From the NCBI GenBank assembly GCA_021787665.1, contig JAJYLN010000008.1:14739-78738 (forward strand): a stretch of DNA of 64,000 bases, written 5' to 3'. Made by a program: the position numbers and the translations under genes. The notes beneath the pieces were generated by a model. It saw nothing but the letters and a program-made list of their open reading frames with translations. It did not search any database and had not been told where the DNA came from. Position 1 is the first letter of the stretch. Each line of letters opens with the position of its first letter. This DNA comes from a bacterium. GTDB taxonomy: Bacteria; JAMCPX01. Of the stretch, positions 21,292 through 37,885 are shown piece after piece.

Positions 21292-23205
21292 TTGAGAAGG
21301 TACATTGACAAGCCCGTCCTTGAGAGAGGAGGGCTTTTTTTATGCGCCTTTCTCTTGGCAGGGCCAACATACGCCGTCGGAGCATCGTACGATGTTGCTC
21401 TGCAAATGAAAGAGGTCGTCGTTACCGGAGAACGGGTCCCATCCCGCTACGAACTGAGCCCTTCCTCTGAATCTGTCATCACCGCATCGACCATGGAAAA
21501 TGATGCGACGCTGCAGGATGCGCTGTCGCAGTCGTCGGATGTAACTATACCATCGTATGGCTGGATGGGCGCGCTCTCGGGCATATCCATCCGCGGTGCG
21601 GACACGAGCCAGTCCGAGATCTTGCTCGACGGTGTCCGCCTGAACAATGTCGAGCTGTCGGGGTTCGACCTCTCGACCTTCCCCCTGTCCGGCATCTCCT
21701 CCATAGATATCGCCCGGGGAGGTATGTCCAGCCTGTACGGAGAGTCCGCCATGGGCGGCGTCGTGAACATCCTGCCGGACGTGTTCCCCACAGCGGACAG
21801 CGTGGCAGTGAAGGCAATGGTGGGCAGTTTTCAGAGCTACCATGCCGATGCCACGGCAAAGGGCAGGGCCGGTGATTTCGGGTATCTTCTTTCCCCTGGG
21901 TACGAATCGTCGCAGGGCGATTACCCGTACACCGATGACAACGGCAACCAGCAGGTCCGGACCAACAACGATTATCATGGCATGTGGGTGCTTGCAGGGA
22001 TCGGGTTCAGCAGCGGCGGGAACAGGGTGTATGCCCTGACGCACCTGTATACCAGCACCAAGGGGGTGCCCGGGGCGCTCGGCATGCTTTCACCGCAGGC
22101 ACAGGAACATGATACCCACGGGATCTATATTATGAATTGCACGCATACCTCGGATACTGTGACCGTCAAGGCGGTTCTGAGCCACGTGAATGAGGATTCG
22201 TCCTATTTCGACAATGTTTATGTGCCCGAATCCAGTCCGTCGAAGTCCGATGACACGGACAACGAGGCCGGCGTTACGGTCAGCCTCCTCCGTATTCCCT
22301 ACAATACCATCAGTATCAACGGTGACGGGCTTTTGCAGCAGGCGGTATCCACGAATATCGGCCGGCACACCCGTACCACCGGAAGTATCGGCGTGGAAGA
22401 TATCGCACACCCGCTCGAGTGGCTTGTACTCGTTGGTGACGCGGCGTACCAGCATATCTCCGATATCGGAAGCGTTGTGACCTACGGCCTCGGTACCGCA
22501 GTCAAGCCCATCTCATGGATGGCTGTGAAGGCGCGCGTGTCGACGTCGTATCAGGCCCCGTCACTCGATGATCTTTACTGGCCCGATGCCGCCGGTGCGC
22601 AGGGCAACCCGGCCTTGCAATCCGAGACTAAAAACGGCTATGAAGCAGGACTGCTGCTGTCACCGCTGAGCAGTACGACCATCGAATTGAACGGGTTTTA
22701 CGACCGGTATCACAACCTCATCCAATGGTCGCCGTCGATAAACAATGTGTGGATGCCGCAGAACGTCTCCGGCGCGGTTATCCATGGCATCGAGCTCTCC
22801 CTGAAAACGTCACCCGTGGACTTTCTGACGCTCTCCGGGAACGTCGGCCTGCTGGACACACTCAACCTCTCGAACACGCCCCAGGGCGTCTACGAAAAAG
22901 GGTTGTTATACAGGCCGGACATCATCGAAAACACCTGCATAAAGATAGGCAGGGACAATAGGTATATAGCACTGAGTTTCGGATATACGGGACAGAGGTA
23001 CGCTACACCAACGAACAGCCAGGCGCTCCCCGGGTTTTATAACCTCAGCGCAACACTGAGCTACAGGATAGCATGGATAAGGCCCTTTATAACCTTCACG
23101 CAGTACCTCTCCGATACATTCGACACCCTGGAGAGCTACCAGTACCTGTCCGGCTATCCATTGCCGGGCAGGTATGTGTGGGGAGGGATAGAATTCAAAA
23201 TATAA
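21292..23205 (+). CDS. TonB-dependent cobalamin/corrinoid receptor, BtuB-like
   Basis: 637 residues if translation begins at TTG 21292. The signal peptide core is L-F-L-C-A-F-L-L-A-G, with cleavage expected near Y-A-V-G-A. A TonB-box-like E-V-V-V-T-G follows. The plug domain shows I-S-I-R-G-A-D-T-S-Q-S-E-I-L-L-D-G-V and Y-G-E-S-A-M-G-G-V-V-N-I-L. The rest is a 22-strand-type barrel ending in W-G-G-I-E-F-K-I. The start is uncertain: no ATG fits, and a GAGGCAGGA sits very close to the TTG. The riboswitch terminator hairpin lies inside the signal-peptide codons. Imports cobalamin or cobinamide across the outer membrane. Confidence 0.88.
   Translation: MRRYIDKPVLERGGLFLCAFLLAGPTYAVGASYDVALQMKEVVVTGERVPSRYELSPSSESVITASTMENDATLQDALSQSSDVTIPSYGWMGALSGISIRGADTSQSEILLDGVRLNNVELSGFDLSTFPLSGISSIDIARGGMSSLYGESAMGGVVNILPDVFPTADSVAVKAMVGSFQSYHADATAKGRAGDFGYLLSPGYESSQGDYPYTDDNGNQQVRTNNDYHGMWVLAGIGFSSGGNRVYALTHLYTSTKGVPGALGMLSPQAQEHDTHGIYIMNCTHTSDTVTVKAVLSHVNEDSSYFDNVYVPESSPSKSDDTDNEAGVTVSLLRIPYNTISINGDGLLQQAVSTNIGRHTRTTGSIGVEDIAHPLEWLVLVGDAAYQHISDIGSVVTYGLGTAVKPISWMAVKARVSTSYQAPSLDDLYWPDAAGAQGNPALQSETKNGYEAGLLLSPLSSTTIELNGFYDRYHNLIQWSPSINNVWMPQNVSGAVIHGIELSLKTSPVDFLTLSGNVGLLDTLNLSNTPQGVYEKGLLYRPDIIENTCIKIGRDNRYIALSFGYTGQRYATPTNSQALPGFYNLSATLSYRIAWIRPFITFTQYLSDTFDTLESYQYLSGYPLPGRYVWGGIEFKI
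21310..21341 (+). terminator. Riboswitch expression-platform terminator, inside the btuB-like start region
   Basis: AAGCCC (21310-21315) plus TCCT (21317-21320) pair with AGGA (21327-21330) plus GGGCTT (21331-21336), leaving one bulged G, followed by an uninterrupted run of seven T to 21341. Folding should be controlled by the upstream aptamer. Confidence 0.8.
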
Positions 23206-24520: not shown

Positions 24521-24604
24521 GGATTGTAGAAATGGAGGAGTGTCCAAAGAAAAAGTGTGTTATTGCATTTTTCGGATGAGTGCATACGAGCATGGGTGTC
24601 GCAC

Positions 24605-26170
24605 ATGGCATGTAAGACGCTGATGGTACAGGGCACGGGCTCGGGTGTCGGCAAGAGCACGGTGGTTGCGGGCCTGTGCAGGGTATTCAGGGACATGGGT
24701 GTCCGGGTGGCTCCGTTCAAGGCGCAGAACATAGCATTGAACTCTTCCATCACGATCGACGGAGGTGAAATTGCCAGGGCACAGGCGCTCCAGGCCCTGG
24801 CATCTGGCATAGAGCCCTCCGTGGACATGAACCCGGTCCTGATCAAGCCCTCGGACAAAAATACAGCACAGGTCATCGTGCACGGAAAAGTATGTGCGGA
24901 TGTAAGAGCCGGCACATACCATAGACTGAAAAAGACGCTTGCATCCGACATAAAAGAATCATTCGACAGGCTTTGCATGCAATACGATCTCATCGTCCTG
25001 GAAGGCGCAGGCAGTGCAGCGGAGATCAACCTCGCGAAAGACGAGCAGGTCAATATGTTCATGGCACGGTACGCGGGCGCGCCGGTCCTGCTCGTAGCAG
25101 ACATAGACAGAGGCGGCGTGTTTGCGTCTTTCTACGGCACGGTCAAGCTGCTCGGCAGGGACAGCAGGTACATCAAGGGACTGATCATAAACGGGTTCAG
25201 AGGGAACATGGACATGTTCGGGCCCGGTCTCGATATGATCCGGGGGAAGACCGGAAAGCCCGTTGTCGGCGTGATACCATATATCAACGACATCGGACTG
25301 CCGGAAGAGGACGGATGGCTGATGTCCCGGCAGGGGAATGCAGCAGGTGATAGAGGGAATAATGCGGGGACGTCGCGCCAACGTCGGGATGTCCCTGTAG
25401 TAACTATCGTTGTCGTCAAGCTGCAGTACATCTCGAACTTCACGGACTTCGACCCTCTTTCCTGTGAGCAGGACGTTGACCTTGTGTTCTCCGGCAGCCC
25501 CGCGGTCATCAGGCAGGCCGATATGGTGATCGTCCCAGGCTCGAAGAACACCATGGACGACCTCTCGTTTTTGCGCAGCACAGGCATGGAGCATGCGATA
25601 CGGGACGCCCACGCAAAAGGCACAGAGATAATCGGTATATGCGGGGGCTACCAGATGCTGGGCAAAAGGCTTTGTAATCCATACAAGACCGAAGGCGCGA
25701 TCAAGCGGGCGAACGGTATCGGGCTGCTGGACATAGAGACGACCTTCCAGAGACATAAGATCACGTGTCAGGTCGAGGCTGAACTGGTTGGAGGAAACGG
25801 ATGGCTGAAAGCCGGAAGGTTAAAAGGTTTGCATGCCTATGAGATCCATATGGGCGAGAGCAGGGGAGATATAGGACTGTTCAGGATAAACCGGCTTACC
25901 GCAGATACAGAGGGCCGCGTAAAGATACAGCAGACGCTCATGGACGGGTCCATGAACGGTAATTGCTGGGGCACATATATGCACGGCATCTTCGAGAACG
26001 ACCGTTTCAGGCGATACCTGCTCGACCGTGTCAGGGACAAAAAAGGGCTGGGGCCGCTGCATCGTAGGTCGAGCTATGCCCGGGCAAGAGAGGGCGCCAT
26101 CGACAGACTCGCGAAGGTCATACGAGTGAGCCTCGACATGGATTTTATAAAAAGGACCGTTGGACTATGA
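24605..26170 (+). CDS. cobQ: Cobyric acid synthase
   Basis: 521 residues from ATG 24605. The P-loop-like ATP-binding N-terminal domain reads M-V-Q-G-T-G-S-G-V-G-K-S-T-V, then P-F-K-A-Q-N-I-A-L-N-S and V-L-E-G-A-G-S-A-A-E-I-N-L. The class I glutaminase domain has its nucleophile Cys in I-I-G-I-C-G-G-Y-Q-M-L-G and M-H-G-I-F-E-N near the end. Amidates cobyrinic acid a,c-diamide at b, d, e and g. The open frame extends to 24557 but homology begins at 24605. The linker between domains (about 25335-25400) carries a low-complexity insert containing an inverted repeat. Overlaps the next gene by four bases (ATGA). Confidence 0.92.
   Translation: MACKTLMVQGTGSGVGKSTVVAGLCRVFRDMGVRVAPFKAQNIALNSSITIDGGEIARAQALQALASGIEPSVDMNPVLIKPSDKNTAQVIVHGKVCADVRAGTYHRLKKTLASDIKESFDRLCMQYDLIVLEGAGSAAEINLAKDEQVNMFMARYAGAPVLLVADIDRGGVFASFYGTVKLLGRDSRYIKGLIINGFRGNMDMFGPGLDMIRGKTGKPVVGVIPYINDIGLPEEDGWLMSRQGNAAGDRGNNAGTSRQRRDVPVVTIVVVKLQYISNFTDFDPLSCEQDVDLVFSGSPAVIRQADMVIVPGSKNTMDDLSFLRSTGMEHAIRDAHAKGTEIIGICGGYQMLGKRLCNPYKTEGAIKRANGIGLLDIETTFQRHKITCQVEAELVGGNGWLKAGRLKGLHAYEIHMGESRGDIGLFRINRLTADTEGRVKIQQTLMDGSMNGNCWGTYMHGIFENDRFRRYLLDRVRDKKGLGPLHRRSSYARAREGAIDRLAKVIRVSLDMDFIKRTVGL
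25367..25395. repeat. Short inverted repeat inside the cobQ linker
   Basis: GGGACGTC (25367-25374) pairs with GATGTCCC (25388-25395) with one G-U. It lies in a stretch encoding R-G-N-N-A-G-T-S-R-Q-R-R-D-V-P, which ordinary cobyric acid synthases lack, so it looks like an in-frame repeat insertion. Confidence 0.45.
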
Positions 26171-27618
26171 CTAAAAAGACCCGCCCGGTGCTGAAGGGAG
26201 TCGTTATAGCCGGAACACACAGCGGGTGCGGAAAGACGACCGTAACGCTGGGGATTCTCAGCGCATTAAAAAAGAAAGGCCTGAGGGCCCAGCCGTTCAA
26301 GGCAGGCCCGGATTTTATAGATGCGGGCCTGCACGCCTCTGTTACGGGCTTGTCCTCGAGGAACCTTGACGTATGGATGTGCGGCGAGGAAGGGGTAAGG
26401 CAATGCTTTTATAAATATGCTTCGGATGCCGATATCTCGGTTGTGGAAGGCGTCATGGGCATGTATGACGGTTCTTATAGTACAGCCGCACTTGCCGGAT
26501 TATTGCAGGTACCGGTGGTCCTCGTTGTCGATGCTTATGGCATGGCCGAGAGCGCAGGGGCCGTGGTGGAAGGGTTTGCCGAGCATAGAAAAACAAACAC
26601 GTTTGCAGGCGTAATCTTCAACCGCGTATCATCCAAAAGGCATTTTGACATGCTGAAACGCGCGATCAGGAAGGTACCCGTCCTGGGTTATCTCCCCTAT
26701 GACAGGGATTTTGAAATCAAGGAGCGGCACCTCGGACTGATGACTGCACAGGAGAGCCATCTGTCGCAACGAGACATCGATAGGCTTGGGAAAACGGTCC
26801 TTGAGCACATCGATGTGAAGGACATAATAGACCGGTCCGTCGTAGGGGCAGGGCCGCGGGGGCGTCATTCTGCAGGAGTCCGGCCATCGGCGGGACGACT
26901 GAAGAACCTCAAGGATGTAGATTCTTCGCCTTCGGCTCAGAATGACAGGATAAAAACAGGTCCTTCGCCGAACATCCGCATTGCCCTTGCGTATGACAGG
27001 GCATTTTGTTTTTACTATGAAGATAATCTTGATGCATTGAGAGACGCCGGCGCTGAGATCATCAAATTCAGCCCCCTGCAGGACAAACGCCTGCCTGAAG
27101 CGGATGTCCTGTACCTCGGCGGAGGGTATCCCGAGGTTCATGCCCAGGCATTGTCAGAGAACCGACCGATGATGGAATCAGTCAGGAGATGGGTCGGCGC
27201 AAACAGACCGATATATGCGGAGTGCGGAGGCATGATGTACCTGTCAAAAGGGATACACGGCTTTGACAGCAGGTTTTACCGTATGGCAGGCGTGATGCCC
27301 TTTGAAACCGTGATGGACAGGTCGAATCTGTATTTGGGCTACCGGGAAATAGTCCTGAAGGAAGATTGCATCATAGGAAAGAAAGGAGACCGTCTCAGGG
27401 GGCAGGAGTTCCACTATTCGCACCTCAGGACCGTATCGCCGGACAGATCATTGAAAACGTGCTATAAACTGGGGAGGCGGAACCGCGAAGAAGGCTATCG
27501 TGTACAACGTGTTCTTGCAAGCTATATACATATACATTTTTGCTCCAACCCGGACATTGCGGGTCACTTTATAAATTTCGTAAGGCAGGGGGACATAGAA
27601 TGCTCAGGGGATGTATAG
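26167..27618 (+). CDS. cobB: Cobyrinate (hydrogenobyrinate) a,c-diamide synthase
   Basis: 483 residues. The ATP-binding domain starts V-I-A-G-T-H-S-G-C-G-K-T-T-V, then K-A-G-P-D-F-I-D and V-V-E-G-V-M-G-M-Y-D-G. The glutaminase domain contains the nucleophile in Y-A-E-C-G-G-M-M-Y-L and G-Q-E-F-H-Y-S-H. Equivalent to CbiA in anaerobic-pathway organisms. Its start overlaps cobQ and its end overlaps the binding-protein gene by 19 bases, so the genes are tightly coupled. The inter-domain linker at about 26840-26960 is lengthened by a repeat-derived segment (H-S-A-G-V-R-P-S-A-G-R-L-K-N-L). Confidence 0.9.
   Translation: MTKKTRPVLKGVVIAGTHSGCGKTTVTLGILSALKKKGLRAQPFKAGPDFIDAGLHASVTGLSSRNLDVWMCGEEGVRQCFYKYASDADISVVEGVMGMYDGSYSTAALAGLLQVPVVLVVDAYGMAESAGAVVEGFAEHRKTNTFAGVIFNRVSSKRHFDMLKRAIRKVPVLGYLPYDRDFEIKERHLGLMTAQESHLSQRDIDRLGKTVLEHIDVKDIIDRSVVGAGPRGRHSAGVRPSAGRLKNLKDVDSSPSAQNDRIKTGPSPNIRIALAYDRAFCFYYEDNLDALRDAGAEIIKFSPLQDKRLPEADVLYLGGGYPEVHAQALSENRPMMESVRRWVGANRPIYAECGGMMYLSKGIHGFDSRFYRMAGVMPFETVMDRSNLYLGYREIVLKEDCIIGKKGDRLRGQEFHYSHLRTVSPDRSLKTCYKLGRRNREEGYRVQRVLASYIHIHFCSNPDIAGHFINFVRQGDIECSGDV
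26864..26946. repeat. Dispersed-type repeat inserted in frame in cobB
   Basis: The inverted 9-mers GTCATTCTG (26864-26872) and CAGAATGAC (26938-26946) bound a segment whose right half, GATTCTTCGCC then TTCGGCTCAG, has the look of a widespread intergenic repeat family. It adds about 30 residues to the linker without breaking the frame. Confidence 0.6.
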
Positions 27619-32437: not shown

Positions 32438-33901
32438 TTACCTGCCCCTGTTCACCGCCCAGACCGCAAAGTTTGCTGCGGTGCCGGTGTATTCCTGCGG
32501 GAGAGAGACCAGGGGATTGGCAAGACCCGGCTTCCTCGTGACCGTGTCGCGAAGGCGGTCTGCGTGGACGCCATGCGAGCTCAGTACAGCAGTGAACTCT
32601 TCTTTCGCCCGCTGCCGTGCCTCGTAGAGTTTCATCTGTACCCTGCTCTTGACATTGATCTCCGCGTCACCCGATGTTTCTATGGAAAGGAAAATACTGT
32701 CCGGCAGGTCACTGGTCACCTTTGACTGAACACCGTCACTGAGGGTACTCGGCATACATCCGAACGGCTTAACGGAAACGACCATGTGTGCCTTCCGGTC
32801 CTTGAATGCCATGATGTGCTTGCCGACCTCGAGGTGCCCTTCGCCGCCGGTGATGTGCACGTCGAAGTACGGATTCGCATACTGCGCAAGCCGGTGCTGG
32901 GACGGTAATTTGTGTATCCATGAACCCAGCGCCCTCCGGTATGTATTGAAGTAAAACAGGAAAAGCCTCCTCAGCATGTAGATACCAAGCATCCTCCCTG
33001 CGGATTTCATGGGCCGGATCCTCAGTCGCTCCTTCTCTTCGAGCATACTGCTCCACAGCAGGTAATCGATCCACGTTGACACGGGCTCCAGCTTGACCTC
33101 GGCACCTTCGGATTCGAGCCATCGCGCAAGCCGGTAATTTCCATCCCCTTCCGTGGTCTGCGCCCAGAACTCACCGATGATCTGTACCAAAGGCCTGACC
33201 TGGAGATAATTGACCCTGATAGCTGAAAGCCTGCTGTGCAACTCTTTCAAATGGGCGATAATCGGAGAACCGGTCCGCAGTGCACCGGAGAGTTTCTCGC
33301 GGTACTGCGCTATCACCCCGTCGGTCTCTCCTTTGCTTTCCTCGTAGGGACGTATCCGGTAGCCGGCCTCGTTCAGCATATCGCCCAGGACCAAGGATTT
33401 TATCAGCGCAGCATAAAATTCCTTATTCATATCCAGACCACCGCCGGAGGTCTCCCCGAACTGGTCTGACTGTTCGAAGGTCAGAATTCTGAAGTTGTCA
33501 AAGCCGGCATTCTGGAGCGACTTCCGGTACTCTGCTTCATACATGCCGAACCTGCACGGTCCGCACGCTGCAGCAGTCAGGAAAACGAACTTCTTTTCGA
33601 TGTCCTTGATGCCCCGCTCTTTCAGCCCGTTCAGATAGCGAATCAGGTTACCCACGGTGTAATACGTGGGATTGCACTGTCCCCGGTTGCCGTATTCTTT
33701 CCCGGTCTGCAATGCCCGGTTGTCGGGCACAGGCAGATAATCCGCACGGTATCCGAGGCCCTCGATGGCGCCCTTGAGCAGGTGCTCATGGTTCAGCGTA
33801 AGACCGCCGAACAGGATGGTTGTCGAACCGATCTCCTCCCTGGTCATCGGGAGCTCAACCGGTTTTTTATAATGCCGTATGTCCGGTGTTATCGTATTCA
33901 T
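32438..33901 (-). CDS. 2-hydroxyacyl-CoA dehydratase (HgdB-like) related iron-sulfur protein
   Basis: 487 residues. The region R-G-Q-C-N-P-T-Y-Y-T-V-G-N and, further on, A-A-A-C-G-P-C-R-F-G-M-Y-E-A-E-Y supply cysteines of the kind that bind the cluster in the dehydratase D-component family. G-G-E-G-H-L-E-V-G-K and S-V-K-P-F-G-C-M-P-S-T follow. The start overlaps the activase stop by four bases (33898-33901), so the two are translationally coupled and must be made together. Family knowledge: such proteins receive a low-potential electron from an ATP-driven activator. They resemble the double-cubane-cluster proteins as much as true dehydratases, and no separate alpha/beta dehydratase subunits are seen here, so substrate is unknown. 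Confidence 0.8.
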   Translation of the reverse strand: MNTITPDIRHYKKPVELPMTREEIGSTTILFGGLTLNHEHLLKGAIEGLGYRADYLPVPDNRALQTGKEYGNRGQCNPTYYTVGNLIRYLNGLKERGIKDIEKKFVFLTAAACGPCRFGMYEAEYRKSLQNAGFDNFRILTFEQSDQFGETSGGGLDMNKEFYAALIKSLVLGDMLNEAGYRIRPYEESKGETDGVIAQYREKLSGALRTGSPIIAHLKELHSRLSAIRVNYLQVRPLVQIIGEFWAQTTEGDGNYRLARWLESEGAEVKLEPVSTWIDYLLWSSMLEEKERLRIRPMKSAGRMLGIYMLRRLFLFYFNTYRRALGSWIHKLPSQHRLAQYANPYFDVHITGGEGHLEVGKHIMAFKDRKAHMVVSVKPFGCMPSTLSDGVQSKVTSDLPDSIFLSIETSGDAEINVKSRVQMKLYEARQRAKEEFTAVLSSHGVHADRLRDTVTRKPGLANPLVSLPQEYTGTAANFAVWAVNRGR

Positions 33902-36900
33902 AGATTCACCTCATGTATGGGTTCTGCACCCCTGTGCCATGACAGGGGCTGTACATCCGCTTCCTCTTCTGTTGTCCTGAGTTGCTCTGTGTACTGCTTG
34001 AGAAAGTAATCGATTGTTTCTATCCGTATTTTTATGGAACCTGCAGGCTTGTTCTCGTCGATATCGTGAAACGTGAAGTACGGTGTGTTCGATGCCCGGA
34101 GAATGGATTCGATCGTGCTGTAGATGGGAGCATCGTTTCCGCACCTGAAATTCGACAGATCGACTGCCACAAGATTTCTGTGCCGGGCCGTATACTTTGC
34201 CGCCCACAGCTTTTTATTGGTATTCTCGCTGTACGAGTTTTTCCATACATCGGAGATGCTCATGGGATCATCGAGCTCCCCTGCATCGAGCTCCCTGCCG
34301 AACAACCGGTGCAGGGTTTCAGGATCGATTGGCAGCGCATCGGCAGTGAAGACCGGGTAGCCCCGCTTCTGCAGCTCGGAGAGTATGTCGTGATTGATGC
34401 CGGGATCCGCATGATAGGGCCTGCCGAGGACAACGATCCCGACCCTGCCTTCCTGCTCAAGCCCGCGGATCACGTCGCGTGCCGCGTCCCGCAGGGCCGT
34501 GTAAAATTCCTGCAGTGCGCGCTCTCCCGATTCGATGGCACGTGCGTTTTCCCGTCTGCTCACGCCGAAGTGCTCATGGAAAAACGCGTACAACTGCGAC
34601 CGCAGGAGTTCAGGTTCTGCCATATTCAGGACAGGATTGAAATACCGTATACCGTGCTGCTCGAACACATTATCCTGCTTGGTAAACGCTGCCTTGATGA
34701 CCTCGGGTGTTATCGTGGCGGTCGGGCATGCGTGGCTGTTCACGGTGTTGACGAGTTCTGTCTTGAGGGTGAGCATAATGGGATAGAATATGATGCCGAC
34801 TTGCTTCTTATAGATCAGGTTATGAACGTGTGCGAGTGCGGCCTTGCTCGGAAAGCACTGGTCGATGGATCCCCTTCTCGTGCCTTCCTTGTACATGGCC
34901 TCGTCGGTCACATCCGAATAAACAATGTTCCTGCCGGGCACGCCGATAGCCCTGAGGTACCCGGTAAAAAAAGGCGCTGTGTTGTACATATTGAGCGTAC
35001 GGGGTATGCCGATCCGGGTCTGTTCCCTCATGCGCCGATGGGCAGAACCGTCCAGCTTCCCGAGGACGCCTGCAGACAAGGACGGCGATGGTGCGCTGTC
35101 CTGTCCTGATCCGTACAGATCCGTGTCGAATGCCTGCCGGAGCTGGATTTTTGCCAAGTTTGGATTGGCTTTCTTGATCTTGTCAATCTGTGCCTTTGCC
35201 GTCCGTACTTCATCGATGTTGTCTGCCATGCCTTTTTCACACGAAGCGACGATAAATCTGCTCTTCTCCCCGCCGCTGCGCTGCATATCGATAAAAATCC
35301 TGAGACACTTGTTCTTGCAGTAGGTACAGCGCGTGGTCTGGTCCTGCGTTATCGTATAGGCCAGGTTGCGCACACCCCCTATGCCGATAAAGCGCGAGGG
35401 CCGCTGCCCCAGCAAGCTGATCGATTCCATGGCTGCACCGATGGCTCCGCTCTCGCCGGTATACCGGTGGACCGTGATATTTGCGTCCGGGACACGCGCC
35501 TTGATAAAATCACGCTGGGCCTTGACTACTGCCTTGTTGTTGTGGGTGCCGCCCTGCAGAACGAAGTTTTTACCGAACTTGCCGATGTTCGATTCCTGCA
35601 CAACATACAGCCAGATGTTCTTCGGCAGAACATCGGCAAGGCCTGCCATGATCTCCTCCCGGGTAAACCCCTGCTGCTGGAAGTTGACGATGTCCGCCTC
35701 AAGGAACACTGCACACCCATAGTTGAACACCGGCGCGCGTGCTGCCGTGAATGCTGCGTCGGCATATTCGTGGATTGCGTAGCCGAACCTGTTTGCCGTA
35801 TTCTGGAGGAAATATCCGTTGCCGGCAGAGCACTGCGTGTTGAGCCTGAAATCCTTCACCCTCCCGTTGTCGAGGAAGATGATCTTAATGTCCTGGCCAC
35901 CCACATCGCAAATCACGTCCACGTCCTTGTAGAAGAACAGTGCAGACTTCGTGTGTGCAACGGTCTCCACGATGGCAATGTCCGCGCCTATCGCCTCTTT
36001 GATGATGTCCTTTGCATAGCCTGTGGTGCCGGCGCCAAGGACCTGAAGGGTACTGCCCTTTGCTGCTACGGCATCATTGAGGCTCATGATGATCTGTTTT
36101 GTATCGTCGATCGGATTGCCGCGCGAGAGCAGGTACGCCCGCTCGATGACTTCGCCCGCTTCCGTAATGAGTACGCCCTTGGTCGTTGTAGAGCCCCCGT
36201 CGATGCCGAGATATGCCCTGACGGTTGTACCGCGGACATGGTCTGACATTGGCTGCGGGTTATGTTGATGCAGAGACATGTCCGTCGCATCCGGTGCTGT
36301 GCGTGTAAGAGAGTCAGGTGTCGTCCGTAGTGCCTGCAGGTGCTGACGCAGAAGGCCGCTCCCTTTGAACAGGCTCTCATGGTTATCCTCGAGTCCGTAG
36401 AGGATACTGCCGATGGCTGCAAAGAACTGGGCGTTGTCCGGTACCCTGATATGTACTGCAGGATCGCCGTCCACGGCGATGCCCCGCTGCTCCCAGAGCA
36501 TGGGAATGTTGTGCTGCCAGGCCTGTTTCAGACCCGGCAAAAAGGTATTCGGACCACCCAGCAGGAGCACATCGGGACTCAGAACATTGCCCCTGGTCAG
36601 GACACTGAGGTTCTGCTGGACGATCGCATCGAACAGCGATGCCATGAGTTCTTCCGGCGGAACGCCCTGTTTCTGCAGGCTGTTGATGTCCATTTCCGCG
36701 AACACGCCGCACCTGCCTGCAACCTGGTGTAGTTTGGTGCCCGTATACCTGAGTTGAGAAAGATAGTTCTGCGTTATATTGAGCTTACCGGAGATCCTGT
36801 CGATGACCGTCCCGGTGCCGCCCGCGCACTTGTCGTTCATGGTCGTGAATCGCCGCTTTTTTCCGGTCGACGGGTCTACAGACCAGAGTATTGCCTTGGC

Positions 36901-37254
36901 ATCCTGTCCGCCGATCTCGATGACGCTGTTGATGTCCGGGAACTGCTGTTCGATCACCAGAGTGATTGCATTGACTTCCTGCACGTATCTGCAGCCGAGG
37001 ATCGAAGCTATCGTACCGCCGCCGCTGCCGGTCACGAAGAGATTCAGGCCCGAACTGCCGAACCTTTCCTCGATACCGGAAAGGAACTCAATCACGGTCT
37101 CTATCTGCCGTGCTTCGTGTCTTTGATACGAGCTGTACTGTATTGATTGTGTGCCATCGACAACAACGCCCTTGACTGTCGTCGACCCGACATCAAGTCC
37201 TATGGAGAGTCTGTCCCCGGCCCGGGACCGTATGCTATCTTTCGGACAGTCCAT
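33898..37254 (-). CDS. Giant double-ASKHA acyl-CoA dehydratase activase (BadF/HgdC type) with C-terminal DUF2229
   Basis: 1118 residues from ATG 37254. The first ASKHA/activase module (about 15-290) has I-G-L-D-V-G-S-T-T-V-K-G, I-E-I-G-G-Q-D-A-K and cluster cysteines in N-D-K-C-A-G-G-T-G and A-G-R-C-G-V-F-A. The second module (about 340-610) repeats this: L-G-I-D-G-G-S-T-T-T-K-G, D-V-G-G-Q-D-I-K, N-T-Q-C-S-A-G-N-G and N-Y-G-C-A-V-F. A C-T-Y-C-K-N-K-C cluster motif follows. The DUF2229 region (I-G-I-P-R-T-L-N-M-Y ... D-Q-C-F-P-S-K) and V-L-G-R-P-Y-H-A-D-P-G-I-N lie at the C-terminal end. The fused architecture predicts an ATP-driven electron injector built from one chain. It overlaps the tetR 3' end. 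Confidence 0.88.
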   Translation of the reverse strand: MDCPKDSIRSRAGDRLSIGLDVGSTTVKGVVVDGTQSIQYSSYQRHEARQIETVIEFLSGIEERFGSSGLNLFVTGSGGGTIASILGCRYVQEVNAITLVIEQQFPDINSVIEIGGQDAKAILWSVDPSTGKKRRFTTMNDKCAGGTGTVIDRISGKLNITQNYLSQLRYTGTKLHQVAGRCGVFAEMDINSLQKQGVPPEELMASLFDAIVQQNLSVLTRGNVLSPDVLLLGGPNTFLPGLKQAWQHNIPMLWEQRGIAVDGDPAVHIRVPDNAQFFAAIGSILYGLEDNHESLFKGSGLLRQHLQALRTTPDSLTRTAPDATDMSLHQHNPQPMSDHVRGTTVRAYLGIDGGSTTTKGVLITEAGEVIERAYLLSRGNPIDDTKQIIMSLNDAVAAKGSTLQVLGAGTTGYAKDIIKEAIGADIAIVETVAHTKSALFFYKDVDVICDVGGQDIKIIFLDNGRVKDFRLNTQCSAGNGYFLQNTANRFGYAIHEYADAAFTAARAPVFNYGCAVFLEADIVNFQQQGFTREEIMAGLADVLPKNIWLYVVQESNIGKFGKNFVLQGGTHNNKAVVKAQRDFIKARVPDANITVHRYTGESGAIGAAMESISLLGQRPSRFIGIGGVRNLAYTITQDQTTRCTYCKNKCLRIFIDMQRSGGEKSRFIVASCEKGMADNIDEVRTAKAQIDKIKKANPNLAKIQLRQAFDTDLYGSGQDSAPSPSLSAGVLGKLDGSAHRRMREQTRIGIPRTLNMYNTAPFFTGYLRAIGVPGRNIVYSDVTDEAMYKEGTRRGSIDQCFPSKAALAHVHNLIYKKQVGIIFYPIMLTLKTELVNTVNSHACPTATITPEVIKAAFTKQDNVFEQHGIRYFNPVLNMAEPELLRSQLYAFFHEHFGVSRRENARAIESGERALQEFYTALRDAARDVIRGLEQEGRVGIVVLGRPYHADPGINHDILSELQKRGYPVFTADALPIDPETLHRLFGRELDAGELDDPMSISDVWKNSYSENTNKKLWAAKYTARHRNLVAVDLSNFRCGNDAPIYSTIESILRASNTPYFTFHDIDENKPAGSIKIRIETIDYFLKQYTEQLRTTEEEADVQPLSWHRGAEPIHEVNL

Positions 37255-37822
37255 GCAGCACAAATCCTGTCAGCTCGTTGATAAGGGTATCGATCTGCGG
37301 GAGGTTGTTGTCCGGGCGTGTGATCTTGTCCACGATGTCCTTTACTCCCCCCAGGATAAATACAGCGATGAGCCTGAAATCGCACCGCTCCACGATGCCC
37401 ATTTGTGTACCGAGCGCCAGCGCGCCTTCGATGAGCGCGGTGATCTTGGCGTAGAAGTTGTCGATCTTCTGGTCCGTGATGCTGTCGAGTCCGGGTGCGT
37501 GCCTGAATAGTATCCGTGCGAGTTCCGGATCGTCCGCCGCGAGCTGGAAGACCCTCTTCAGGTTGTCCGCTATCTGCTCCATCGGAGGCTTCTGGTCATT
37601 GCCTACGACGACCCTCTTGACGGACGTATTGATCTCATCGAGAAGTTGATCGAACAGGGCATCGAACACATCGCGCTTTTCCTTGAAATAGAGGTAGAAG
37701 GTGCCCCGTGCGATATTTGCCCGTTTTATTATATCGGTTATGCTTGTCTCATGATAGCCCTTTATAGCGAACATCTCTTTTGCAGAGCTCAGGATCGATA
37801 GCTTCCTCTGTTCAGGTAACAT
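37235..37822 (-). CDS. TetR-family transcriptional regulator
   Basis: 195 residues from ATG 37822, which has AAGGAGAGGGG upstream; the frame open to 37885 runs through the operator and is rejected. The N-terminal helix-turn-helix reads A-K-E-M-F-A-I-K-G-Y-H-E-T-S-I-T-D-I, then A-N-I-A-R-G-T-F-Y-L-Y-F-K. The C-terminal ligand domain is unassigned. A perfect 24-bp palindrome overlaps its promoter, so autoregulation is expected. The activase start codon lies inside its last codons, so the activase and dehydratase-like genes share its control. Confidence 0.9.
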   Translation of the reverse strand: MLPEQRKLSILSSAKEMFAIKGYHETSITDIIKRANIARGTFYLYFKEKRDVFDALFDQLLDEINTSVKRVVVGNDQKPPMEQIADNLKRVFQLAADDPELARILFRHAPGLDSITDQKIDNFYAKITALIEGALALGTQMGIVERCDFRLIAVFILGGVKDIVDKITRPDNNLPQIDTLINELTGFVLHGLSER

Positions 37823-37837
37823 TGCCCCTCTCCTTAC

Positions 37838-37885
37838 ATTAGACTGACATGTCAGTCTAATATAAGGGAGACTTTCTGGTGTCAA
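37838..37885 (-). promoter_or_regulatory. tetR promoter with 24-bp palindromic operator
   Basis: On the minus strand TTGACA (37885-37880), 17 bases, TATTAG (37862-37857). Positions 37838-37861 form a perfect palindrome centred on GACATGTC with arms ATTAGACTGACA/TGTCAGTCTAAT. The operator overlaps the -10, so bound repressor would block transcription. Confidence 0.85.

What the first reader, a model, noticed from the sequence alone, without database searches (positions are those of the whole stretch)
32438..37885. TetR-controlled giant activase and dehydratase-like pair: candidate uncharacterised ATP-driven reductase
One chain carries two ASKHA activase modules, each with its own cluster cysteines, plus a C-x2-C-x3-C motif and DUF2229. 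Its partner has cysteines suited to a second cluster, but no separate alpha/beta dehydratase subunits or CoA-transferase accompany it. With a perfect 24-bp operator and a TetR regulator, it looks like a substrate-induced two-component electron-injection system, comparable to but distinct from the double-cubane-cluster proteins.
Basis: partly seen in the sequence, partly recalled or inferred. Interest (0 to 1): 0.68.

Follow-up and report, generated by a model that had tools for sequence, protein, structure and literature searches.

The report
TetR-controlled ether-lipid (PlsA/PlsR-type) reductase operon
The two big genes are a divergent version of the known bacterial enzyme pair that reduces the ester bonds of membrane lipids to ether bonds, and they sit under a dedicated repressor whose DNA site recurs, in other bacterial phyla, in front of the same enzyme and of other likely ether-lipid genes.

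Summary
In detail: tetR, a 1121-aa protein with two activase domains plus DUF2229, and a 487-aa partner form one operon behind a perfect 24-bp palindrome. The 'uncharacterised reductase' reading is only partly right. The pair has the Act1-Act2-Red1 + Red2 architecture of plasmalogen synthase PlsA/PlsR and glycerol ester reductase Ger, with all eleven cluster cysteines of the giant and three in the partner shared with named PlsA-type proteins. Both Red domains fold like 2-hydroxyacyl-CoA dehydratase/benzoyl-CoA reductase/DCCP subunits, so the 'missing' alpha and beta subunits are present. It belongs to a deep third clade (29-32% identity to PlsA in the A part), found in many phyla including aerobes, with no member I know to have been tested. 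Its operator GACTGAC-RY-GTCAGTC is invariant across the window's phylum. In 188 Myxococcota genomes, 35 of 36 exact sites (about 1 expected) precede clade genes, fused PlsA/Ger-type genes, or a FAR/HAD/NAD-epimerase/acyl-ligase operon resembling the elb ether-lipid operon. Best explanation: ATP-driven reduction of glycerolipid ester to (vinyl or alkyl) ether, switched by a lipid-linked TetR. Product and ligand are unproven.

The parts
37832..37867 (.). TetR operator: 36-bp near-palindrome (94% complementary) with a perfect 24-bp core at 37838-37861
   Evidence: core invariant in G003, G004, G005; single site in the genome
37857..37885 (-). Putative sigma-70-type promoter: TTGACA at 37885-37880, TATTAG at 37862-37857 (17-bp spacer), -10 overlapped by the operator
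   Evidence: sequence; TTGACA invariant in relatives; promoter activity inferred
37235..37822 (-). TetR-family regulator, 195 aa from ATG 37822
   Evidence: Pfam TetR_N, TetR_C_24 weak; best NCBIfam resemblance FadR, far below cut-off; start supported
33898..37263 (-). Giant A subunit (Act1-Act2-linker cluster motif-Red1), PlsA-like; likely start ATG 37254; overlaps the tetR end
36553..37203 (-). Activase module 1 (C146, C185)
   Evidence: PF01869 match (converted to window coordinates); Cys conservation
35425..36210 (-). Activase module 2 (C478, C517)
35239..35328 (-). C-x2-C-x3-C-x21-C motif (C646, C649, C653, C675), probable extra [4Fe-4S] site
   Evidence: 100% conserved in clade A and in PlsA-type proteins; cluster inferred
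33949..35406 (-). Red1: dehydratase-type reductase domain with DUF2229 (34336-35016); C803, C846, C1041
   Evidence: AF2 pLDDT 88; Z 10-13.7 to benzoyl-CoA reductase, hydroxyisocaproyl-CoA dehydratase and DCCP chains, next unrelated 6.9
32438..33901 (-). Partner R subunit (Red2), PlsR-like, 487 aa; C76, C116, C382 shared with PlsR-type sequences, C113 clade-specific; ATG overlaps the giant's stop by 4 bp
   Evidence: AF2 pLDDT 85; Z 7-8.8 to the same enzyme family

Best explanation
A two-subunit, ATP-dependent glycerolipid ester reductase of the PlsA/PlsR-Ger superfamily under a dedicated TetR repressor. The two fused activase modules form an intramolecular 'archerase' that hydrolyses ATP and fires low-potential electrons from one shared [4Fe-4S] cluster. 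Electrons pass, possibly through the linker cluster, to the Red1/Red2 heterodimer, which reduces a fatty-acyl ester of a phospholipid and eliminates water, giving a vinyl ether or, after further reduction, an alkyl ether. TetR binds the palindrome over the -10 box and represses its own operon until an unknown signal releases it, most plausibly an acyl-CoA-like or other lipid ligand, or redox state. Shown here: operon, operator, architecture, conserved cysteines, folds, clade, shared regulon. Inferred: cluster types, electron path, substrate, product, ligand, direction of regulation.
For: Homologues of the partner are mostly the C-terminal third of a ~1430-aa fusion whose N-terminal part is the giant. 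Adjacent split pairs also occur in Fusobacterium, as reported for C. perfringens plsA-plsR (PMC12838417). All cluster cysteines are shared with named PlsA-type proteins. Red1 and Red2 both fold as dehydratase/BCR/DCCP subunits. Family distribution fits: DUF2229 is in Thermotoga and Lactococcus but not E. coli or B. subtilis. A tetR upstream of pls is reported in E. faecalis (PMC9702350). Shared regulon: 36 exact operators in 188 Myxococcota genomes, reversed-pattern control 0 in all genomes listed, 35 of them in front of clade A genes, fused PlsA/Ger-type genes (L284, L309), or HAD-FAR-NAD-epimerase-PSTR / ECH-ACP-acyl-ligase genes that resemble the elb ether-lipid operon described in PMC9131029. 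No CoA-transferase or other enzyme gene recurs beside the pair.
Against: Identity to named PlsA-type proteins is only 29-32% (A part) and 20-22% (R part). The clade is separated by a long stem of 1.04 changes per site and no member known to me has been tested. It occurs in aerobes (Nannocystis, Polyangium, Bacillus chungangensis, Paenibacillus), odd for an oxygen-labile chemistry. The lipid-gene regulon was seen in Myxococcota; in the window's own genome the operator is single. Lipids of this phylum are unknown.
Confidence: 0.78

Rival explanations
1. Clade A reduces an acyl thioester or ester in a lipid-related pathway other than membrane ether lipids (fatty aldehyde or alcohol supply, wax or hydrocarbon precursors), and shares the regulon for that reason.
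For: Co-regulated genes include fatty acyl reductases, acyl ligases, an enoyl-CoA hydratase-like protein and an ACP.
Against: The same operator precedes fused PlsA/Ger-type genes, and every cluster cysteine is kept as in PlsA.
Confidence: 0.12
2. An atypical DCCP- or benzoyl-CoA-reductase-like enzyme that reduces a small or aromatic substrate, induced by it through TetR.
For: Fold similarity of Red1 and Red2 to DCCP and BCR chains; TetR regulators often sense small molecules.
Against: No HGD-D Pfam or DCCP NCBIfam match; closest families by sequence are PlsA-type; regulon is lipid-related; no aromatic or CoA-transferase genes recur nearby.
Confidence: 0.06
3. An ordinary 2-hydroxyacyl-CoA dehydratase with fused activator.
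For: Public annotation of relatives as '2-hydroxyacyl-CoA dehydratase' or 'acyl-CoA dehydratase activase'.
Against: The genome has a separate activase + two HGD-D proteins that fit that role; neither Red domain matches HGD-D.
Confidence: 0.04

Closest known systems
PlsA/PlsR plasmalogen synthase (Clostridium perfringens; fused PlsA in Enterococcus, Lactococcus, Listeria)
   Same: Act1-Act2-Red1 + Red2 order; split in two adjacent genes as in C. perfringens; all cluster cysteines except C113; a tetR beside pls in facultative anaerobes
   Different: Separate clade, 29-32% / 20-22% identity to named PlsA-type proteins; extra near-invariant Cys in Red2 (C-G-P-C); different operator; also in aerobes
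Ger, glycerol ester reductase (Thermotoga maritima, Desulfatibacillum alkenivorans)
   Same: Two activase domains, PlsA homologue; an ester-to-alkyl-ether step is a likely product type here
   Different: The validated Ger sequences could not be fetched, so clade placement relative to them is untested; the D. alkenivorans Ger is one 159-kDa chain
DCCP/DCCP-R double-cubane-cluster protein
   Same: Archerase-driven electron injection; same Red-domain fold
   Different: Separate small activase homodimer and single reductase; no sequence-family match
Benzoyl-CoA reductase (Bzd/Mbd) and 2-hydroxyisocaproyl-CoA dehydratase
   Same: Two dehydratase-fold subunits plus ASKHA activase
   Different: CoA thioester substrates, separate subunits, different sequence families
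elb ether-lipid operon of Myxococcus xanthus
   Same: A HAD, FAR, NAD-epimerase, acyl-ligase, ACP gene set like it is under the same operator in Myxococcota
   Different: No activase or Fe-S reductase in elb; only the gene content was compared, not sequences

Membership tests
PlsA/PlsR-Ger superfamily | Two activase modules, DUF2229/Red1 and Red2 in one chain or two adjacent genes | tested here: met
PlsA/PlsR-Ger superfamily | Conserved cluster cysteines in all four domains | tested here: met
   Eleven in the giant and C76/C116 of the partner 100% in 69 clade A and 31 other rows; C382 100% in the others and invariant in the partner alignment A4
PlsA plasmalogen synthase proper | Falls inside the clade of named PlsA-type proteins (Listeria, Fusobacterium, Collinsella) | tested here: not met
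   Clade A is one side of a branch with SH-aLRT 100, next to but outside the PlsA clade
PlsA plasmalogen synthase proper | Makes vinyl ethers | not testable with these tools
   needs expression and lipid analysis
Ger glycerol ester reductase | Two PF01869 domains ('BB') | tested here: inconclusive
   Met, but PlsA-type proteins of Listeria, Fusobacterium, Collinsella also show two, so it does not discriminate
Ger glycerol ester reductase | Groups with T. maritima or D. alkenivorans Ger | not tested
2-hydroxyacyl-CoA dehydratase | HGD-D (PF06050) subunits | tested here: not met
   No PF06050 match in giant or partner, while the genome's other set matches strongly
DCCP | NCBIfam double_cubane model NF040772 | tested here: not met
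   no match
Dehydratase/BCR/DCCP fold superfamily | Red-domain fold | tested here: met
   Red1 Z 10-13.7, Red2 Z 7-8.8, well above unrelated rows
TetR autoregulatory operon | Palindromic operator over the promoter, conserved with the gene pair | tested here: met
   binding itself not tested

The most novel reading that the evidence does not exclude
Clade A is a third functional class of glycerolipid ester reductase, used by facultative and even aerobic bacteria of many phyla, and governed by one conserved TetR-operator module (GACTGAC-RY-GTCAGTC) that in Myxococcota also controls an elb-like ether-lipid operon: a cross-phylum ether-lipid regulon that, as far as I could find, has not been described.
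Probability: 0.5. Interest if true: 0.7.

Novelty: new variant of a known kind. Interest (0 to 1): 0.5.

Why it matters
Which bacteria make ether lipids and branched tetraethers, and with which enzymes, is an open question behind widely used palaeotemperature proxies; published work says PlsA and Ger cannot yet be told apart by sequence. A well-marked third clade in Acidobacteriota, Myxococcota, Planctomycetota and others, with a diagnostic operator, gives testable candidates, a regulatory handle, and a way to find co-regulated lipid genes in uncultured phyla.

Tried and rejected
Phmmer of the partner against the PDB gave only noise; its fold was placed by AlphaFold2 instead. Neighbour clustering around 80 named loci found no conserved enzyme besides TetR; other recurring clusters were shadow ORFs or two-component-like and other generic genes. 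The 'two activase domains = Ger' rule was tested and does not discriminate here. A tetraether synthase (NF045702) search of the own genome gave only weak radical-SAM matches under the cut-off. NAD_binding_4 matches in the own genome are ordinary SDR-like hits and were not pursued. One Myxococcota operator (L286) has no credible target. Operators upstream of Listeria and Collinsella pls are palindromic but different. Jackson 2021 and Sahonero-Canavesi 2022 were not in the library. Laying the whole genome in the Python box was not available. Extra sites with one mismatch (G119, G127) were not interpreted.

Full report
Observation. The window holds, on the minus strand, a tetR gene, a 1121-aa protein and a 487-aa protein in one tight operon. 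tetR ends inside the start region of the giant, and the partner's ATG overlaps the giant's stop by four bases. Pfam finds two BcrAD_BadFG stretches and DUF2229 in the giant and nothing in the partner. The palindrome ATTAGACTGACATGTCAGTCTAAT is exact.

What the proteins are. The partner looked family-less, but in 25 of 60 sampled genomes it has homologues, mostly as the C-terminal third of a single ~1430-aa protein whose N-terminal part is the giant. That architecture is the plasmalogen synthase PlsA. In C. perfringens it is split into plsA and plsR; in enterococci and lactococci it is one chain with two activation and two reduction domains, and expression in E. coli is enough to make plasmalogens (PMC12838417; PMC9702350). 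A close homologue, Ger of Thermotoga and Desulfatibacillum, makes saturated alkyl ethers on heterologous expression (PMC11150832, PMC13274423). A named split pair in Fusobacterium animalis and a fused one in Listeria were fetched for comparison.

Cysteines and folds. In an alignment of 69 pairs of the window's kind and 31 others, C146, C185, C478, C517, C646, C649, C653, C675, C803, C846 and C1041 of the giant and C76 and C116 of the partner are in every row. C382 is in every one of the 31 others and is invariant in the 29-row partner alignment; many clade rows in the larger alignment have a gap there. Only C113 of the partner is peculiar to this clade (97%). AlphaFold2 models of the partner (pLDDT 85) and of residues 620-1105 of the giant (pLDDT 88) match 2-hydroxyisocaproyl-CoA dehydratase, benzoyl-CoA reductase and DCCP chains: best rows Z 7-8.8 and 10-13.7, against 5.4 and 6.9 for the first unrelated rows. 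From the known structure of HgdC-type activators, the two fused activase modules most likely share one [4Fe-4S] cluster (established knowledge, not tested here).

Clade. A tree of 66 proteins (LG+G4, quick search, SH-aLRT only) puts the window's pair in a group of 35 on one side of a fully supported branch with a long stem, next to but outside the PlsA group with Listeria, Fusobacterium, Collinsella and Haliovirga, and apart from a third large group of mostly fused proteins. I call it clade A. Identity to named PlsA-type proteins is 29-32% in the A part and 20-22% in the R part. Named members come from Acidobacteriota, Ignavibacteriota, Planctomycetota, Myxococcota (Nannocystis pusilla, Polyangium), Paenibacillus, Bacillus chungangensis, Nitrospirota, Thermovibrio and others. 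Gene order varies, and the two are fused in some Chloroflexota. The window's own phylum holds only nine genomes of one family; eight have the giant, in whole or part, and the ninth (G006) has the partner at a contig edge. Aerobic Solibacter usitatus makes mono- and diethers and carries PlsAR homologues proposed for that step (PMC10087280), so such enzymes in aerobes are not without precedent.

Regulation. TetR is the one gene that clearly recurs beside clade A pairs in several phyla. The operator core is unchanged in G003, G004 and G005 while the flanks have drifted, and it is the only such site in the genome. ACTGAC-N2(or N6)-GTCAGT lies just before tetR or the giant in loci of Nitrospirota, Thermovibrio, Myxococcota and Pseudomonadota-labelled MAGs, including several with no tetR adjacent; I saw no exact hit elsewhere in the 1.83 Mb scanned. 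I then scanned 188 Myxococcota genomes for GACTGAC-RY-GTCAGTC: 36 exact sites in 26 genomes, none for the reversed control pattern, about one expected by chance in roughly 1 Gb.

Regulon. Of these 36 sites, 35 have a nearby target of a few kinds, counted by me: the clade A giant (18, one of them known), its partner alone (2), a fused PlsA/Ger-type gene of the other large group (2: L284, L309), an operon HAD - FAR-like reductase (NAD_binding_4 + Sterile) - NAD-epimerase - PS_pyruv_trans-like protein (9), an enoyl-CoA-hydratase-like gene followed by an AMP-binding ligase (3), or the PS_pyruv_trans-like gene (1). Three genomes (G123, G142, G200) have sites at the pair and at both lipid gene sets. 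In G157 the lipid genes form one run that includes an acyl carrier protein with the DSL motif. This content resembles the elb operon, which in M. xanthus makes ether lipids: HAD (ElbB), FAR1-like + acyl-CoA synthetase + ACP + acyltransferase (ElbD), NAD-epimerases (ElbA, ElbE) (PMC9131029). The comparison is of gene content only. It is the strongest functional evidence here, and it is from Myxococcota, not from the window's organism.

Mechanism. Shown: operon, operator, domain order, conserved cysteines, folds, clade, regulon. Inferred: ATP-driven electron firing from the Act1-Act2 cluster through the reductase domains to a glycerolipid acyl ester, with loss of water; repression by TetR over the -10 box; relief by a lipid-type or redox signal. 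Alkyl versus vinyl ether cannot be decided: the published 'two activation domains' hint is met also by PlsA-type proteins, and the literature says sequence alone does not decide (PMC13274423).

Verdict. A member of a known superfamily in a divergent, untested clade, with a newly seen cross-phylum operator; not an unrecognised kind of reductase.

Noticed in passing
L104:10381-13464 (G000 contig C15, about 265380-268463): A separate, ordinary-looking activase (256 aa) plus two HGD-D proteins (398 and 365 aa) resembling hydroxyisocaproyl-CoA dehydratase or benzoyl-CoA reductase subunits, below equivalog cut-offs.
   Followed up: partly
L284 and L309 (Myxococcota genomes G279, G253): The same operator lies directly before fused PlsA/Ger-type genes of a different clade; G253 carries both kinds under it.
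   Followed up: yes
L316:1046-10340: Single run HAD-FAR-NAD-epimerase-PS_pyruv_trans-AMP ligase-ECH-ACP-AMP ligase behind one operator: an elb-like operon with separate genes for most ElbD domains.
   Followed up: partly
L191: A MAG contig titled Klebsiella pneumoniae whose clade A genes group with Myxococcota; the label is probably wrong.
   Followed up: no
L070 / L071 (G018): In this single-contig 1.5-Mb genome the two subunit genes are unlinked, about 560 kb apart, with no tetR found beside them.
   Followed up: no
L117, within the 300 bases upstream of 3989: Perfect palindrome GAGTGAGTACTCACTC upstream of the Listeria pls gene, a likely operator of another regulator; Collinsella (L120) has AATACAACAGTCTGTTGTATT.
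   Followed up: no
G000 genome: 36 radical-SAM matches in a 2.25-Mb genome, one weakly like tetraether synthase (C33:11311-11847, 56.7 bits, cut-off 450).
   Followed up: no
window 24557-27615: Two consecutive CobB/CobQ-type amidotransferase proteins near a TonB receptor (21292-23202): looks like a cobalamin-related gene set.
   Followed up: no
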